From a virus: a stretch of 64,000 bases of DNA. The stretch lies in IMG/VR virus record IMGVR_UViG_3300025000_000063, positions 64,001-128,000 of that record, one strand, 5' to 3'. The notes beneath the pieces were generated by a model. It had not been told where the DNA came from and did no database searches. It worked only from the letters and a program-made list of their open reading frames with translations. Positions 20,650-62,780 of the stretch are shown in pieces. Positions within the stretch are counted from its first letter, which is position 1; each line of letters begins with the position of its first letter. Both the position numbers and the translations under genes were made by a program.

Positions 20650-21120
20650 ATGAACATAGAAGAATTCTTGCCAATTAAGAGTAGGGTGCTTTCAAAAATG
20701 AGCAAATTTGAATTGGCAAAGAAAAAATGCACATCGAAAGAAGAATTGCGTGTCCTGGAAATGCAATACCTCCGCCCGGAAAAGTTGCAGAAAACAACAC
20801 AAGTGAACCACGCAGCATCTATTGATGACAGAATTATTGAAGTTGTTTTTGCAAATGAAGAAGACATCCAAAACTTCAAGCAGTTTTTCTCTGTAACTTC
20901 TCGCAGATCACTCGGGGTGAAGCAATCACTGTACAGGATTAATTTGCTTTTAGATTTTATCGCAGCATTGAAATCAGGGGAAATATCTTATGATTCGGAA
21001 AAACGAAAATTCAAGTACCAAACAGAGCCAGAACATGACGAAAGAAGATCAGATCGGAAACGGAATATTACCTCCACTAAACTCCGACATCTTAAAAGAA
21101 GCAAACAAATGGCTTCTTGA
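20650..21120 (+). CDS. Hypothetical protein downstream of the clamp
   Basis: 156 aa, preceded by AAGGAGG. It contains FELAKKKCTSKEELRVLEMQYL and SIDDRIIEVVFANEEDIQNFKQFF and has a basic C-terminal tail that overlaps the radical SAM gene in another frame. No family recognised. Confidence 0.6.
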   Translation: MNIEEFLPIKSRVLSKMSKFELAKKKCTSKEELRVLEMQYLRPEKLQKTTQVNHAASIDDRIIEVVFANEEDIQNFKQFFSVTSRRSLGVKQSLYRINLLLDFIAALKSGEISYDSEKRKFKYQTEPEHDERRSDRKRNITSTKLRHLKRSKQMAS

Positions 21121-21871
21121 GAATACAGACAGGACAGCCCACGGAACATATGGTTCCCCACGGGTGAGCAGTGAATTACCTGATTGCAGTATGCCGATGA
21201 CATTTGATCAGTATAGTTACTGTGGACTCGGCTGTTGCTATTGCACTATTGCAGGGACTCCAATTTCTGTTGTTGGTGGGAATAAACCAATTGAACATCT
21301 TATGGTAGGAGATAGTATTTACAGCAGGAACGTCGAAACAATGCAAATGGAGGTAACAGAAATAACAGCCACCATGGAAAGGACAGTGCATGAGATTTAT
21401 GAGATTGAACTTGAAAATGGGCGGAAGTTAAATATCACAGGTGAACATCCTGTTTGGGTGAATAATTCTGAATGGAAATGCGTAAAAGACTTAAAGCTAA
21501 CTGATGAAGTTGATTTTGTAGAAAAGCCGTATTTAGTTGCACGGAACCAAGAATACCAATTTAGAAAAAATGTATCAAAACGCATGAAGAAAAATAATCC
21601 AAGGTGGGTTGCTGGTGTCACAGAAAGAACATCGAAAACATTAAAAAAACGGTATGCCAGTGGTGAATTAACTCCATATTGGTTAGGAAAAGAAAAACCA
21701 GACGCAAAACATAGGATGCTGACAAACAATCCGATGAAGGACCCAACCATCAGAAGAAAGACATTGCAAAAATCAGTAAAAACATGGCTTGAAAATGGAA
21801 GAATTTCAATCGGTGAAAAAAGGTACGGAAAGCACTACGTGTGCTCGGTGAAAACTTTATTCATGAAATGA
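21035..21871 (+). CDS. Radical SAM protein, N-extein plus intein N-terminal region (frameshifted end)
   Basis: The N-extein carries SYCGLGCCY, the first two cysteines of a radical SAM CX3CX2C cluster motif. The intein begins at Cys 21242-21244 (CTIAGTPISVVGG), with block B as LNITGEHPVWV. NUMOD-like helices follow. The frame then runs into a stop about 50 nt past an A6 run (ISIGEKRYG...), while the -1 frame reads straight into the nuclease domain. The start could be 20990 or 21035; I prefer 21035 for lack of conserved sequence before it. Confidence 0.7.
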   Translation: MTKEDQIGNGILPPLNSDILKEANKWLLENTDRTAHGTYGSPRVSSELPDCSMPMTFDQYSYCGLGCCYCTIAGTPISVVGGNKPIEHLMVGDSIYSRNVETMQMEVTEITATMERTVHEIYEIELENGRKLNITGEHPVWVNNSEWKCVKDLKLTDEVDFVEKPYLVARNQEYQFRKNVSKRMKKNNPRWVAGVTERTSKTLKKRYASGELTPYWLGKEKPDAKHRMLTNNPMKDPTIRRKTLQKSVKTWLENGRISIGEKRYGKHYVCSVKTLFMK

Positions 21872-22211
21872 AAATACCAGGACCAAAAAGAGAATACACG
21901 CTTGATTTTTTCTTGCCTGATAAAAATATTGTAATAGAGTATGATGGGCACAGTAAGCATTATACAGAAAAGGGGCAAGAAAAACATCATGAACGTGATA
22001 ATTGGTTGTATCAAAAACATGGCATAATTACTGTTCGTATACATAGAGACGAAACAAAATTACCTGTCACCCAGTTTAGTAAGTTGCTTACCGAAAGGAT
22101 TGCAAAATGCGCATAAAAAGCATTGTTATAAAAAAAGGGACTTTCAGAGTCCATAACATTGAAACGTCTAAACATAATAATTATTATGCCAATGGTGTGC
22201 TTGTGCATAAT
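21242..22211 (+). mobile_element. Intein with EDxHD endonuclease, two single-base losses
   Basis: It spans from Cys1 (21242) to Asn (22209-22211), just before Cys+1. Length is 970 nt, exactly two short of 972 (324 codons). Two -1 shifts, one at the A6 near 21820 and one at the AAAA near 22100, reconcile the three frames. Either both are decay or sequencing errors in A runs, or the element is expressed as separate pieces like the fractured split inteins known from phages. Confidence 0.8.
21841..22116 (+). CDS. Intein-borne EDxHD (Vsr-like) homing endonuclease domain
   Basis: This frame encodes ENFIHEMKIPG, EYTLDFFLPDKNIVIEYDGHSKHY and RDNWLYQKHGIITVRIH, the layout of Vsr-like/EDxHD nucleases found in homing endonucleases of phage inteins and introns. 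It is open upstream to about 21817 (KKVRKALRVLGEN), so it joins the preceding frame by a -1 shift near the A6 run. It ends at TAA 22116, overlapping the next frame at an A4 run. Confidence 0.75.
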   Translation: MLGENFIHEMKIPGPKREYTLDFFLPDKNIVIEYDGHSKHYTEKGQEKHHERDNWLYQKHGIITVRIHRDETKLPVTQFSKLLTERIAKCA

Positions 22212-23438
22212 TGTTTTTCATACTTCTTTAAGAGCAACAACCCAAGCATGAAAACACATGAACTCAAACAAGTGAATGTAAAAAGGTTGTTGAAAAAAAT
22301 GAATGGTGAATCACCGCAAGATGTAATGTACCGGCATTTTTATAAAAGAAAATTCTTGTTGCATTGGGGTGGATTGGCAGATCCATTTTGTTCATTTGAA
22401 AAAACAAACGGAACCGGGCTTGAATTAATTAAAGGGCTGGGGAAATTAAATTACCCAACCCTCTTTTCATTCAAAGGACCAACAATCTTAGAAAAGAACT
22501 ACCTCAAAACATTTGAGAAATACCAAAAACAGTCAAATTTTGCTTTCCAGGCATCCATTATAACCCGTGATGATGATATGGCAAAACGGGTTGAAATTGG
22601 GGTGCCAAGCCCAACAAAAAGATTAAAAGCATTGAAAGAACTCAGTGATATGGGGTATTGGACTATCCTCAGATTACGTCCTTTTATTGTTGGAATTTCT
22701 GATGTTGGCCTTGATGAACTATTAAACGATGCCCTCGCTGCTGGTATTAACGGTGTCAGTTGCGAGTTTTTTGCCATGGATGCAAGAGCAAATATCGGAA
22801 TGAAGACCAGGTATGATTGGCTGGGCCAGTTAACCGGGATAAAAAATATGCATGAATATTACACGGTGCTCAGCCCAAAAGAACGTGGCGGGTACCGGAG
22901 GCTCAATAGGCTTGTAAAAGAGCCATATATCAAAAAGATCTATAAATTCTGCATTGAAAATAATTTGGTTTGTGGGATCAGTGACCCTGACTTTAAAGAG
23001 TTGAACACCTCTGGATCATGTTGTGCCATGCCGGATAATTTTAAAAAGAACCCGGAAATGCAAAACTGGACTACATCCCAATTGACATACCACCTGAAAG
23101 AAATCAGGAAAACATATCACAAAACAGGAAAGCTTGAAAGGCTTTATTTTGATAAAGTGTACAACAGTGGTAAAGAAACATACCTGGAAGAATGGCGTTT
23201 TGCCAATGACCACCCATGTACTGTTGGAATGTCACACGCCAGGGTCCGGAACACCAATCTAAAACAAATCACACAACGGTCCTGGAATAATTTACACAGT
23301 CCTGGAAATCCCAGGAACTATTTCCATGGGAAAGTTGTTCCGGTTGACCAGGACAGTAAGGGCAATTTAGTTTTTGAGTATGCCCCACATGATTATGAAG
23401 CACAATGGAAAAAAGAAGGTATCGATTTAACAAAATAA
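22107..23438 (+). CDS. Intein C-terminal region plus radical SAM C-extein
   Basis: The first 35 residues are the intein C-terminal block (FRVHNIETSKHNNYYANGVLVHN), followed by Cys+1 and the extein CFSYFFKSNNPS. Splicing would create SYCGLGCCYCF, a complete CX3CX2C [4Fe-4S] motif, with Cys+1 as its third cysteine. The remaining 400 residues form a radical SAM barrel (FKGPTILEKNYL, LRLRPFIVGIS) resembling the spore-photoproduct-lyase/Rv2578c group. The substrate is unknown; the adjacent glycosyltransferase suggests DNA base modification. Confidence 0.8.
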   Translation: MRIKSIVIKKGTFRVHNIETSKHNNYYANGVLVHNCFSYFFKSNNPSMKTHELKQVNVKRLLKKMNGESPQDVMYRHFYKRKFLLHWGGLADPFCSFEKTNGTGLELIKGLGKLNYPTLFSFKGPTILEKNYLKTFEKYQKQSNFAFQASIITRDDDMAKRVEIGVPSPTKRLKALKELSDMGYWTILRLRPFIVGISDVGLDELLNDALAAGINGVSCEFFAMDARANIGMKTRYDWLGQLTGIKNMHEYYTVLSPKERGGYRRLNRLVKEPYIKKIYKFCIENNLVCGISDPDFKELNTSGSCCAMPDNFKKNPEMQNWTTSQLTYHLKEIRKTYHKTGKLERLYFDKVYNSGKETYLEEWRFANDHPCTVGMSHARVRNTNLKQITQRSWNNLHSPGNPRNYFHGKVVPVDQDSKGNLVFEYAPHDYEAQWKKEGIDLTK

Positions 23439-58399: not shown

Positions 58400-59608
58400 T
58401 TATCCTCTTATTTTTATTTGTTTACAAATTTGATGCAACACTCTGTTGGCCTCCATTATTACTAAATGCCCAACCTCAACAGAGGTATCAATAAAAATCC
58501 TACAACCAGCTTCACGGGCCTTGTTACAAAAATAAAAATCCTCGCCTACCGGACGGCCGTTATGAACATCAAACTTGAACCAAGGAGGCTCAAGTTTGTC
58601 AAAAACGCTCATATTGATCAAAAGACATCCCGTGCCGGTTGCATCCACTTCTATCAGATCCCCGGAATACATTTCTGACTCAGGGACGCTTTCGTACTTG
58701 TCAAGATTGCCCCTCATGAAGATAGGATCAAACGGCGGATACCGCCTATGAACCCTTACCCCACAAATATCAACGTCATGGGCCGCAAGCTTATGGAGCA
58801 TGTCAACCGGATAAACCTGATCCGTGTCACACATCAACAAGTGACTTGCCCCTTCGTTCAATGCCTGGAAAACAAGGCTTTCTCTGGCTTCTGCAAGATT
58901 GCATGTCCAGGGGCCATGAGGTGTTTGGGGAACGAGCAAAGTATATTTTTCAGGCTTTGCCATGGTTTCAAATGAGAAAAAAAATTGAACCGGTAGAGTA
59001 TCGTTGACAAGAGGGAAGCCTATCGCCAAAAGACCGCCTTTCCGTTCCCTCTTTCTTCTGAAGTATGTGGCCCGGTCGATCTTAAATTTATCCCCGCCAT
59101 AAGCCTTCTCGTACCACTCATCAGACTCACCACCGTTTACCGGGTGGTCATGTTCGATAATGGCGTCGTCAGCATAGACCCATCGACCTTGTTCAATAGC
59201 GATGTCCTTGAGTTCGTCGTCCCCATAACAATGCAGGTATTCCGTTGAAAAGAAATTTCCCCCAGGGATATGCCCAAGGATTCTCTTGTCGGCCATCCAG
59301 TGAGCGTGGTCATTTCCTGGCGTGGTGTTAAATCCAACAACACCCCATCCATCAGGCAAGCTTTCCATTTTTGCCAAAGCATTTTGAAAGGCCCCGGCCT
59401 GAACAATCGTATCGTCGCCCAGGAAAACGACAATCGGCCTCGTGGTTCTGCCCGTCAACCTTTTAACCATCTTAGGACATCCGATACCAGCGACGTCAAT
59501 CCCGGTGATTATCTCAACTCCTGGACAATGTAACTCAATTGACTCGATGCACCGTTTAGCTTTTTCAAGCCGAACGATAGGAATAATGACTGATACCCGG
59601 TCAAACAT
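58400..59608 (-). CDS. Two-domain glycosyltransferase
   Basis: 402 aa. The N-terminal half is a GT2-like (GT-A) fold: VSVIIPIVRLEKAKRCIESI, then VVFLGDDTIVQAG and ADDAIIEHDHP. The C-terminal half is a second GT-A-type domain: TLLVPQTPHGPWTC, HLLMCDTDQVYP, DPIFMRG and PVGEDFYFCNKAREAG. It lies in the tail operon between neck and tail tube genes. It could glycosylate virion proteins or host surface sugars; the acceptor is unknown. Confidence 0.75.
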   Translation of the reverse strand: MFDRVSVIIPIVRLEKAKRCIESIELHCPGVEIITGIDVAGIGCPKMVKRLTGRTTRPIVVFLGDDTIVQAGAFQNALAKMESLPDGWGVVGFNTTPGNDHAHWMADKRILGHIPGGNFFSTEYLHCYGDDELKDIAIEQGRWVYADDAIIEHDHPVNGGESDEWYEKAYGGDKFKIDRATYFRRKRERKGGLLAIGFPLVNDTLPVQFFFSFETMAKPEKYTLLVPQTPHGPWTCNLAEARESLVFQALNEGASHLLMCDTDQVYPVDMLHKLAAHDVDICGVRVHRRYPPFDPIFMRGNLDKYESVPESEMYSGDLIEVDATGTGCLLINMSVFDKLEPPWFKFDVHNGRPVGEDFYFCNKAREAGCRIFIDTSVEVGHLVIMEANRVLHQICKQIKIRG

Positions 59609-60063
59609 TATTTCACCGCCCTTAAAATAAAATGTAAGTGATAGACCCTCATCATAGGATCTGTGAGCTTCCGTTTAAAATACTCAACTTCAAAATTTGC
59701 TTTTGTGTCGTAATATCCCCGGTAAACAGGATGACAGTAGTAGGCAAATCGCCCCTCTGTCCAAAAATTGATGTGTGTCGGGTCCATAAATGCCCCCTGA
59801 CCGTATTCAGCGTCAGGAGTGTGGGTCACAAATTGACACCCGCTCTTAAGAACCCGCCAAACTTCCTCCATGACAAAAGTTGTTGACAGAATCGGAATGT
59901 GTTCCAGAACATCAAAAGCCCTTACTTCATCGACGGAGTTATCTTCAAACGGAAGGCCCTTCGTAAAATCCAGAACTAAATCCGGATTTACCGATTCCCG
60001 ACAATCAATATTGATATACCCATCTGCTTTTTCCTTTCCACACCCAAGGTTTAGCTTTTTCAT
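59608..60063 (-). CDS. SAM-dependent methyltransferase
   Basis: 151 aa. LNLGCGKEKADGYINID (motif I and acidic loop), LPFEDNSVDEVRAFDVLEHI (post I and motif IV region), and EEVWRVLKSGCQF are hallmarks of class I, type 11 methyltransferases. Its TAA overlaps the glycosyltransferase ATG. The pair probably modifies one glycan or protein. Confidence 0.78.
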   Translation of the reverse strand: MKKLNLGCGKEKADGYINIDCRESVNPDLVLDFTKGLPFEDNSVDEVRAFDVLEHIPILSTTFVMEEVWRVLKSGCQFVTHTPDAEYGQGAFMDPTHINFWTEGRFAYYCHPVYRGYYDTKANFEVEYFKRKLTDPMMRVYHLHFILRAVK

Positions 60064-60455
60064 GATTTTTTATACCTACATTCATATGTTACAATAGCCC
60101 GATAAAGCTCGTTCTGAGCCCCGTCCCGGACCGTCTGATAATTCGTTCTTTCCATAATGACCGTTGTATAACCAGCGGCCGTGGGCCTTGCGTCATCATA
60201 TAAAACAATTAATGCGTTGTACGCCGTCATCCGTTTTGCATTGGTGTCAGCGTAAATATCAAATTGGACGGTAACAACTTCAAAACGCTCCCCGCCGAGA
60301 TAGTAATCTGGATAACCGGATACAAGAAAATAAGTAGCATAAGGCAAAGCGGTATTCTGCGGGGCCAGTTCAATATGAAGACCTCCGGGGATAGCCGCCT
60401 TTAAAGTGGTGTCTCCACTGTACTTTGAATATATGCCGGTTAAAATCTTATCCAC
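60060..60455 (-). CDS. Tail completion protein (DUF3168-like)
   Basis: 131 aa. IYSKYSGDTTLKAAIPGGLHIELAPQNTALPYATYFLV and RFEVVTVQFDIYAD match the DUF3168/tail terminator pattern, which caps the tail tube for joining to the head. It sits after the HK97 gp10-like gene, the usual order. Confidence 0.7.
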   Translation of the reverse strand: MDKILTGIYSKYSGDTTLKAAIPGGLHIELAPQNTALPYATYFLVSGYPDYYLGGERFEVVTVQFDIYADTNAKRMTAYNALIVLYDDARPTAAGYTTVIMERTNYQTVRDGAQNELYRAIVTYECRYKKS

Positions 60456-61029: not shown

Positions 61030-62457
61030 TTAATCGTCCAATCCAAAAGTAGAAGGTGGTTTGGTGTACCCCGGTTCACTCATTTTTTCTGAGAGCTTAC
61101 GCTTTGCAAAAGCAATATTCTTATCAAGAGCGGGCTTCAGATACGGACGCGCCGGAGCCGGGTGAGGACCGCCATGACCGTGCTCTACCAACCACGAATT
61201 AGAAGTCAACACGCCGTTTGCAAAAAACGAATGGACCCCTTCTATAGACAAATCATAAAGCTTTGTCTGCCCTTTATCGTACCTTTTTTTTGTTAAAGAG
61301 ATAATGTGGGTGTTCTCGAAAAGATCAACATTCACAAATGTTGATATCCCGGGGTTGCAAGGGATGTAAAAAACGTTTTCAATAGGGTTAATATCTATCC
61401 CTTTAGCAGAATCCCCAACTATAAAATGTATGTGAAATATCTTAACGCCGTCTATCGCCTCTAAAATTTTTTTGTCCCGCTCGATGTCCTTTTTTTGATC
61501 CTTATGCCAGTATCCACCATCGACTTCATAAACAATGTTTTCATCTGGCAAATAAAAATCCAGAAATAAAGAGTTTACCTCATATTGAGACACGTACTTC
61601 CGGCCTCCGTCTTTTAACCAAGCTTCGACCTCTTTTTCAATCCGTGTTTGTTTCTGACCCCCCGCAAGCCTGTTAGGATGTAAACCAGGATTCTCCGATA
61701 TCATCTCAAGGCGTTTTACAGACATTCTTTTTTTAGATTCATCACTTCTTTTTGAACCTATATGCGGATTCATATCTGTAGCGTAAGCGGCATCTCGACA
61801 TTTTATCGTGCAGTACACAGACTCTTTTCTGGCCCTTATACCGTTAACACCAGAACCAAACATTTCACCGCAAAAAGCGCACTTTTTAGAACACCCAGTA
61901 CCTTTGTTTTTAGCCATTCTTTTTCTAATGAAAAGCTTATCGGTAAGAACGAGATCGCCCGCTTTTATCCATTGATTTTTACCCTCCCGAAAGACGAGCA
62001 TTTTATGGTCGTCTGTTACAGTGAGCTTGTGATGATGCTTACTGCACTTATTAACGTCGTATACGACCATATCTATCAGATCTGGCTTATCAACAGCCGG
62101 AAACGAGTGCTTGCTGACAACTGAACGATACTCACCAGTTTGAGTCAAAACTTTATCTCCGACTTTAACAGAAGATATTCCAAGGGGGCCTCTGTGCTCC
62201 GTTACAACCCTTGTATCACCTCCAAATATGCACTGCATCGCACCACGGCCGCCAGCTTTCACAATATACCCCCCACCCTCAAACTTACTCTTTTTAACCT
62301 TAATTGATTTTCTAAGGGCTCCAGTTTCATCTTTAAAAGCAACAGTCCGCTTGGCATCGACTTTGATCTGATCGCAAATCTCCTTGCACTTCTCGTCAAG
62401 ATGCTCCTCAAGCGCCTGTAAAAACTCGCTGGCGTCTATTTGAACTTTGACCGTCAT
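61030..62457 (-). CDS. HK97 gp10-like neck/tail-joining protein containing an intact intein
   Basis: 475 aa precursor from the ATG at 62457 (overlapping TAATG). N-extein residues 1-75 (VDAKRTVAFKDETGALRKSIKVKK) and C-extein 421-475 (SWLVEHGHGG, PARPYLKPALDKN) together make a 130-aa HK97 gp10-like protein. The intein occupies residues 76-420, just before the conserved LVEHG...RPYLKPA motif. Splicing would be needed for a working neck protein. Confidence 0.85.
   Translation of the reverse strand: MTVKVQIDASEFLQALEEHLDEKCKEICDQIKVDAKRTVAFKDETGALRKSIKVKKSKFEGGGYIVKAGGRGAMQCIFGGDTRVVTEHRGPLGISSVKVGDKVLTQTGEYRSVVSKHSFPAVDKPDLIDMVVYDVNKCSKHHHKLTVTDDHKMLVFREGKNQWIKAGDLVLTDKLFIRKRMAKNKGTGCSKKCAFCGEMFGSGVNGIRARKESVYCTIKCRDAAYATDMNPHIGSKRSDESKKRMSVKRLEMISENPGLHPNRLAGGQKQTRIEKEVEAWLKDGGRKYVSQYEVNSLFLDFYLPDENIVYEVDGGYWHKDQKKDIERDKKILEAIDGVKIFHIHFIVGDSAKGIDINPIENVFYIPCNPGISTFVNVDLFENTHIISLTKKRYDKGQTKLYDLSIEGVHSFFANGVLTSNSWLVEHGHGGPHPAPARPYLKPALDKNIAFAKRKLSEKMSEPGYTKPPSTFGLDD
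61198..62232 (-). mobile_element. Intact intein with EDxHD homing endonuclease
   Basis: 345 residues in frame. Block A is CIFGGDTRVVTEHRG, block B is LTVTDDHKMLV, and the C-terminus is LYDLSIEGVHSFFANGVLTSN followed by Ser+1. The penultimate residue is Ser rather than the usual His. The middle has a zinc-like CAFCGEMF...CTIKC, NUMOD-like helices, and a Vsr-like nuclease (LFLDFYLPDENIVYEVDGGYWH, ERDKKILEAIDGVKIFHIH). Confidence 0.88.
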
Positions 62458-62780
62458 TACAAGACCTCCGAGCAATGCAGAACCATATCCCCAGCCCTCT
62501 GATAATCTTCAACCCCGGTAATCCGGTATGTCTTTCCGCCATGCGTAACACGACATGAAGAATCAAGCCGCACGTCCCGCCTTACTCGGAGTTTAAATTC
62601 AGTCTTCATTTCAAGTTTTCCGGCTTCAATCCGTTCAGTTCCCCTCAAAGGTATATATTCAGCCCTGCACGGCGCTCCTGATAAATCTGACCATGTTTCA
62701 ACGGTTGCCCCCATGCCGTCCTGTGCAGTTGTCACAGACTGAATTTTTATACTCTGATCAAGTTTTCCTGCTCGAATCAT
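62457..62780 (-). CDS. Head-tail joining (adaptor) protein
   Basis: 107 aa. MIRAGKLDQSIKIQSVTTAQDGMGATVETWSDLSGAPCRAEY and GKTYRITGVEDYQRAGDMVLHCSEV have the pattern of the phage head-tail joining family. Located between the gp6-like connector and the gp10-like gene as expected. Confidence 0.82.
   Translation of the reverse strand: MIRAGKLDQSIKIQSVTTAQDGMGATVETWSDLSGAPCRAEYIPLRGTERIEAGKLEMKTEFKLRVRRDVRLDSSCRVTHGGKTYRITGVEDYQRAGDMVLHCSEVL

What the first reader, a model, noticed from the sequence alone, without database searches (positions are those of the whole stretch)
61030..62457. Intact intein in a virion neck protein
Phage inteins are mostly found in replication, packaging or nucleotide genes. 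Here a 345-aa intein with an EDxHD nuclease sits before the most conserved motif of an HK97 gp10-like protein, making a structural joining step depend on protein splicing. The penultimate residue is Ser instead of His.
Basis: partly seen in the sequence, partly recalled or inferred. Interest (0 to 1): 0.7.

Follow-up and report, generated by a model that had tools for sequence, protein, structure and literature searches.

The report
Intein in phage tail completion protein
A small phage protein that plugs the neck of the virus particle is interrupted by a self-splicing, self-spreading protein insert (an intein) at the spot where a relative grips the end of the viral DNA, and seventeen relatives of this insert sit at the same spot in other uncultured phages.

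Summary
ORF 61030..62457(-) encodes a 475-aa precursor: an HK97 gp10-type tail completion protein (TCP) interrupted by a 345-aa class-1 intein (Cys76-Asn420; DNA 61198..62232). A natural intein-free allele (L009) has exactly the predicted spliced junction AMQ|SWLVEHG, so this is a precise 1035-nt in-frame insertion. Class-1 catalytic residues are present; penultimate Ser replaces His. The nuclease is Vsr/DUF559-type, closest in the PDB to I-Bth0305I, the EDxHD prototype. Intein-only searches found 17 further distinct relatives (35-83% identical), every one in a TCP at the same point. Penultimate Ser is a family trait (17/18; Ala in one), not decay. +1 is Ser/Cys in 18/18 intein-bearing genes and 2/15 intein-free ones. 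dN/dS is about 0.04-0.14 in splicing and nuclease domains where measurable. By alignment to the 80alpha TCP (9mu2), the insertion falls between the equivalents of Y78 and F81, which cap the DNA end in the neck. No relative was found in 50,697 phage records or 84,980 prokaryote genomes at the sensitivity used. This is a new intein allele family of a known kind; splicing and homing are inferred, not shown.

The parts
61030..62457 (-). Tail completion protein (HK97 gp10-like/Neck1) precursor gene, 475 aa plus stop, interrupted by an intein
   Evidence: GGAGG at 62465-62469
62233..62457 (-). N-extein, residues 1-75, ending ..GRGAMQ
   Evidence: contiguous with the C-extein in L009
61198..62232 (-). 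Intein, residues 76-420 (345 aa, 1035 nt): Cys1 at 62230-62232, penultimate Ser at 61201-61203, terminal Asn at 61198-61200
61921..62232 (-). Hint N-terminal part of the intein (blocks A and B, TxxH = T73/H76 of the intein); domain border approximate
61654..61920 (-). Cys4 finger (C118, C121, C141, C145 of the intein) and NUMOD3-like stretch, probable DNA-binding part; borders approximate
   Evidence: NUMOD3 in 3 of 18 members
61348..61653 (-). Vsr/DUF559 (EDxHD-type) nuclease domain; borders approximate
61198..61347 (-). Hint C-terminal part (block F Asp327 and His334, block G ..LTSN); border approximate
61033..61197 (-). C-extein, residues 421-475, starting with +1 Ser in SWLVEHG..
62457..62780 (-). 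Upstream neighbour: head closure protein Hc1 (PF05521), overlapping the TCP start
60060..60455 (-). Downstream neighbour: tail terminator (PF11367)

Best explanation
This is an intact, probably active class-1 intein with an embedded Vsr/EDxHD-type homing endonuclease, in the gene of a phage tail completion protein. Predicted route: Cys76 attacks the Gln75-Cys76 bond; Ser421 takes over the N-extein; Asn420 cyclises, helped by the invariant block-F His because the usual penultimate His is a Ser; the exteins join as AMQ-SWLVEHG and the mature 130-aa protein enters the neck. Independently, the finger/NUMOD and nuclease part cuts intein-free TCP genes at this site and the intein is copied in by recombination, which spread the element among phages. 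Shown here: anatomy, precise insertion, empty allele, conserved catalytic residues, predicted folds, purifying selection, single-site family. Inferred: splicing, cleavage, homing, and the need for splicing before virion assembly.
For: Empty allele with the exact predicted junction and a 1035-nt insertion. Hint fold and Vsr/I-Bth0305I-like domain. Class-1 residues Cys1, TxxH, block-F Asp and His, terminal Asn in all 14 aligned full-length members and in the two added later. 18 distinct inteins, all in TCPs at the same point although the searches used intein sequence only. +1 Ser/Cys in 18/18 against 2/15 intein-free homologues, Fisher 1.8e-7. Low dN/dS in Hint and nuclease where measurable. Patchy presence: nearest relatives L007-L009 lack the intein, while more distant L004, L011, L012 have it. 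Loss of the penultimate His is documented in splicing phage inteins and a block-F His can substitute (PMC5050341). TCP identity by fold and profile: 9mu2_P, prob 1.00, Z 8.3, profile E 4.3e-10.
Against: No experiment shows splicing or cleavage. No co-conversion tract is visible between the window and L009 (identity near the site is similar to that farther off), so no recent homing is shown in this lineage. Higher intein than extein identity (45% against 29%) may reflect stronger constraint rather than transfer. PF14890 scores below its cut-off. The 15 intein-free homologues were mostly fetched through one query and are partly related to each other.
Confidence: 0.92

Rival explanations
1. The intein splices but the nuclease no longer homes; the element is now inherited mainly vertically at a fixed site.
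For: No co-conversion footprint near the site. An otherwise common Glu in the first helix of the nuclease is replaced in L021 and L023. dS is saturated between kin, so the intein is old in this group.
Against: Nuclease dN/dS about 0.05 where measurable, no higher than the Hint part; invariant catalytic-type residues in 18 members; the closest relatives lack the intein.
Confidence: 0.25
2. The insert is a decayed intein that no longer splices, so the TCP is non-functional or works in precursor form; the Ser at the penultimate position marks the decay.
For: Non-canonical penultimate residue; PF14890 below its curated cut-off.
Against: The same Ser in 17 of 18 relatives with all other catalytic residues intact; frame open over 475 codons; low dN/dS; Ser, Gly and Lys reported at this position in phage inteins, and a Gly one splices (PMC5050341).
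Confidence: 0.03
3. Splicing of this intein is regulated and serves as a timing step for head-tail joining or DNA retention, so the phage gains from keeping it.
For: Insertion in the DNA-end-capping loop; long retention at one site under purifying selection; tuned splicing proposed for phage inteins without the penultimate His (PMC5050341).
Against: Close relatives do without it; selfish homing into a conserved motif explains the site just as well.
Confidence: 0.07

Closest known systems
Class-1 phage inteins lacking the penultimate His (e.g. mycobacteriophage RDF intein; PMC5050341)
   Same: Cys1, block B/F/G residues, nuclease inside the Hint fold, non-His penultimate residue (Gly, Lys or Ser reported), host protein binds nucleic acid, insertion in a functional region
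   Different: Host protein is a tail completion protein; penultimate Ser is near-fixed across a diverse family; nuclease is Vsr/DUF559 type
I-Bth0305I, prototype of the EDxHD homing endonucleases (3r3p; PMC3943268)
   Same: Vsr-like catalytic fold; best PDB match of this nuclease by profile and a significant one by structure
   Different: I-Bth0305I is encoded by a group I intron (own knowledge); here the nuclease is fused inside an intein with a Cys4 finger
Mycobacteriophage portal protein inteins (PMC5050341)
   Same: Intein in a protein of the virion head-tail axis
   Different: Portal protein rather than tail completion protein; intein relationship not tested here
Tail completion proteins HK97 gp10, SPP1 gp16.1, 80alpha gp51 (9mu2)
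   Same: Host protein family, fold and gene order
   Different: These have no intein; the window protein has AMQ instead of the usual xYA before the site and one extra residue after it

Membership tests
Class-1 intein | Nucleophile (Cys/Ser) at position 1 and Cys/Ser/Thr at +1 | tested here: met
   Cys76 and Ser421; Cys1 in all full-length members and Ser/Cys +1 in 18/18
Class-1 intein | Block B TxxH, block F Asp, terminal Asn | tested here: met
   Invariant T73, H76, D327, N345 of the intein
Class-1 intein | Penultimate His (usual, not obligatory) | tested here: not met
   Ser in 17 of 18, Ala in one; block-F His334 invariant; absence known in splicing phage inteins (PMC5050341), so class membership stands
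Class-1 intein | Hint fold | tested here: met
   AlphaFold2 model pLDDT 81; Mtu RecA intein Z 18.9, 1.9 A over 133
Class-1 intein | Precise excision: intein-free allele equals the joined flanks | tested here: met
   L009
Class-1 intein | Protein splicing activity | not testable with these tools
   needs expression
EDxHD (Vsr-like) homing endonuclease | Vsr-like nuclease fold related to I-Bth0305I | tested here: met
   3r3p best by profile, E 5.4e-6; fold match prob 1.00; DUF559 in 18/18 members, Vsr in 7
EDxHD (Vsr-like) homing endonuclease | Exact catalytic residues of the family motif | tested here: inconclusive
   Invariant D225, E236, D238, H243, D249, D253 of the intein; a defining paper is not held, so the residue definition was not checked
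EDxHD (Vsr-like) homing endonuclease | Cleavage of the intein-free site | not testable with these tools
   a natural empty target, L009, exists
Tail completion protein (HK97 gp10 / phrog_5) | Sequence profile | tested here: met
   phrog_5 2.3e-16 with flanks joined; profile of intein-free relatives hits 9mu2_P at 4.3e-10; PF04883 alone is below its cut-off
Tail completion protein (HK97 gp10 / phrog_5) | TCP fold | tested here: met
   Low-confidence model of L009 (pLDDT 61), but 9mu2_P is the only strong match: prob 1.00 against 0.08 for the next, Z 8.3
Tail completion protein (HK97 gp10 / phrog_5) | Gene between head closure and tail terminator genes | tested here: met
   PF05135 and PF05521 upstream, PF11367 downstream

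The most novel reading that the evidence does not exclude
The intein has been kept at this single site because splicing times the appearance of the DNA-end plug, a post-translational checkpoint on head-tail joining or DNA retention in these phages.
Probability: 0.07. Interest if true: 0.8.

Novelty: new member of a known kind. Interest (0 to 1): 0.5.

Why it matters
It adds tail completion proteins to the known intein hosts, with a single-site intein family found in phages whose TCPs share on average about 29% sequence. The insertion falls between the equivalents of the two aromatic residues that cap the DNA end in the 80alpha neck, so infectious virions should require splicing, which can be tested directly. 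The near-fixed penultimate Ser offers a natural set of His-less class-1 inteins. TCP genes interrupted this way may also be missed or misannotated in uncultured phages.

Tried and rejected
(1) Isolated oddity or decayed intein: rejected, since 17 distinct relatives share site and residues. (2) Assembly artefact: unlikely, since the same DNA lies in a separate contig, L003, and the empty allele matches exactly. (3) Cultured phage with this intein: none found in 50,697 records (best hits partial). (4) Cellular or prophage carriers: the genome-contig scan gave only three partial, nuclease-region matches. (5) Recent homing by co-conversion: not seen. (6) Intein-free homologues of the L028 TCP: none found. 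(7) Direct sequence match of L009 to cultured phages or PDB: none convincing; the profile was needed. (8) The paper on fractured genes and the EDxHD family that I tried is not held. (9) No paper on an intein in a tail completion protein was identified from the search listings; the library holds open-licence papers only and the listed papers were not all read. (10) TCP inteins with another nuclease or none would be missed, because the scan patterns came from the nuclease and block F. (11) No family tree was built; exteins are short and divergent.

Full report
Observation. The window is bases 64001-128000 of a 137,054-base uncultured virus record. The ORF at 61030..62457 on the minus strand encodes 475 aa; ATG at 62457 is preceded by GGAGG at 62465-62469. 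Residues 76-420 form an intein (DNA 61198..62232, 1035 nt); flanking residues are ..GAMQ and SWLVEHG.. Intein profiles hit: PF14890 at 1.6e-7 but below its curated cut-off, TIGR01443 above its cut-off. The nuclease part hits DUF559, Vsr and phage homing endonuclease families.

Empty allele. A scan of viral contigs gave an identical second record (L003), two full-length relatives (L004 and L005), a partial one (L006) and three intein-free alleles (L007-L009). L007 and L008 are also empty but read AMQ-AFLAEHG, without Ser at +1. So the intein is absent from the closest relatives (extein about 90% identical) and present in more distant ones (L004, L011, L012; extein 56-68% identical to the window), a patchy pattern.

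Family. Searching with the intein alone found further relatives at 35-83% identity. Reading the frames shows that all lie in HK97 gp10-like tail completion proteins at the same point, within one codon: N-extein mostly ..YA, C-extein S-x-V-E-x-G-T or close to it. There are 18 distinct inteins, 16 of them full length (near-identical copies counted once). Joined exteins of ten of them hit phrog_5 'tail completion or Neck1' at 1e-10 to 1e-21. Of six downstream genes tested, three (L016, L020, L058) are recognisable tail terminators and three gave no family hit. Because the query held no extein, the restriction to one host protein is not built into the search. Penultimate residue: Ser in 17, Ala in L024. 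+1: Ser in 17, Cys in L006/L027. In 15 intein-free homologues +1 is mostly not a nucleophile (2/15; Fisher 1.8e-7, or 1.8e-6 after thinning), as expected if the +1 residue is kept for splicing.

Active or dead. Cys1, block-B Thr and His, block-F Asp and His, terminal Asn, four finger cysteines and the nuclease residues D225, E236, D238, H243, Q246, D249 and D253 (intein numbering) are invariant among the aligned full-length members. Between the window, L004, L011 and L012, dN/dS is about 0.04-0.14 in Hint, finger and nuclease parts where dS is not saturated; it is saturated in many comparisons. Both functions therefore look maintained. In mycobacteriophage inteins the penultimate His is replaced by Gly, Lys or Ser, a Gly one splices well, and an upstream block-F His can take over (PMC5050341).

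Structure. The AlphaFold2 model of the intein (pLDDT 81) matches solved inteins (Mtu RecA Z 18.9, 1.9 A over 133) and, in its middle, the I-Bth0305I catalytic domain 3r3p (also best PDB profile match, 5.4e-6). The model of the intein-free allele L009 is weak (pLDDT 61), yet its only strong PDB match is the tail completion protein of the 80alpha/SaPI1 neck, 9mu2_P (prob 1.00 against 0.08 for the next; Z 8.3, 3.4 A over 104). The profile of intein-free relatives hits the same chain at 4.3e-10 and nothing else up to E = 1.

Position in the neck. In 80alpha, Y78 and F81 of this protein stack on the last base pair of the packaged DNA, and N55 and R87 hold phosphates (PMC11661146). The profile alignment places family Y-A|S-Y-V-E-Y-G-T on Y78-S79|G80-F81-L82-E83-F84-G85-T86, so the intein lies between the two DNA-capping aromatics. 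The window protein itself lacks the first aromatic (AMQ instead of xYA) and has one extra residue, so the mapping is good for the family and approximate for this member. In SPP1, particles without the tail completion protein are about 4% infectious and release DNA outside the cell (PMC11099176). From this it is inferred, not shown, that the unspliced 475-aa protein cannot do the job and that splicing comes before assembly.

What is known and what is new. Inteins with embedded nucleases, non-His penultimate residues, nucleic-acid-binding hosts and insertion in functional motifs are known, and so are inteins in a virion protein, the mycobacteriophage portal (PMC5050341). No paper on an intein in a tail completion protein was identified in the held library, and no full-length relative of this intein turned up among 50,697 phage records (two intein queries) or in a motif-based scan of 84,980 prokaryote genomes. 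These negatives hold only for those collections and sensitivities. I class it as a new member of a known kind: a new single-site intein allele family.

Limits. Splicing, cleavage and homing were not tested. No co-conversion tract was found. Intein identity exceeding extein identity in 116 of 120 pairs (means 45% and 29%; some extein alignments are short) may reflect constraint as well as transfer. Intein databases such as InBase were not available.

Noticed in passing
window 20990..23438 (+): A second intein in the same phage, in a gene whose flanks look like a radical-SAM motif (..YCGLGCCY | CFSYFF..; not confirmed by a family hit). It is split over three overlapping frames: N-extein and N-intein (PF14890 3.3e-11), a DUF559 nuclease ORF (21841-22116), and C-intein VLVHN|C with the C-extein. 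Either a decayed intein or a fractured-gene split intein.
   Followed up: partly
L029:1-3540; L031:3-2549; L032:3522-6497: Related Vsr-type nucleases inside inteins of a protein that looks like a Mu F-type minor head protein, inserted at an HPxC|RC motif with penultimate His and +1 Cys; L029 carries two inteins in one protein.
   Followed up: no
L007:6225 and L008: An intein-free allele with altered junction AMQ|AFLAEHG, lacking +1 Ser: a possible homing-resistant allele or a footprint of imprecise loss.
   Followed up: partly
window 58400..60063 (-): A methyltransferase (PF08241) and a glycosyltransferase-like gene (weak PF03452 match, below cut-off) sit between the tail terminator and the major tail protein genes.
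   Followed up: no
L062:49-3252: A terminase-like protein carrying a different, larger intein (..GMLLHN|S) in a contig from the same sample number as L012.
   Followed up: no
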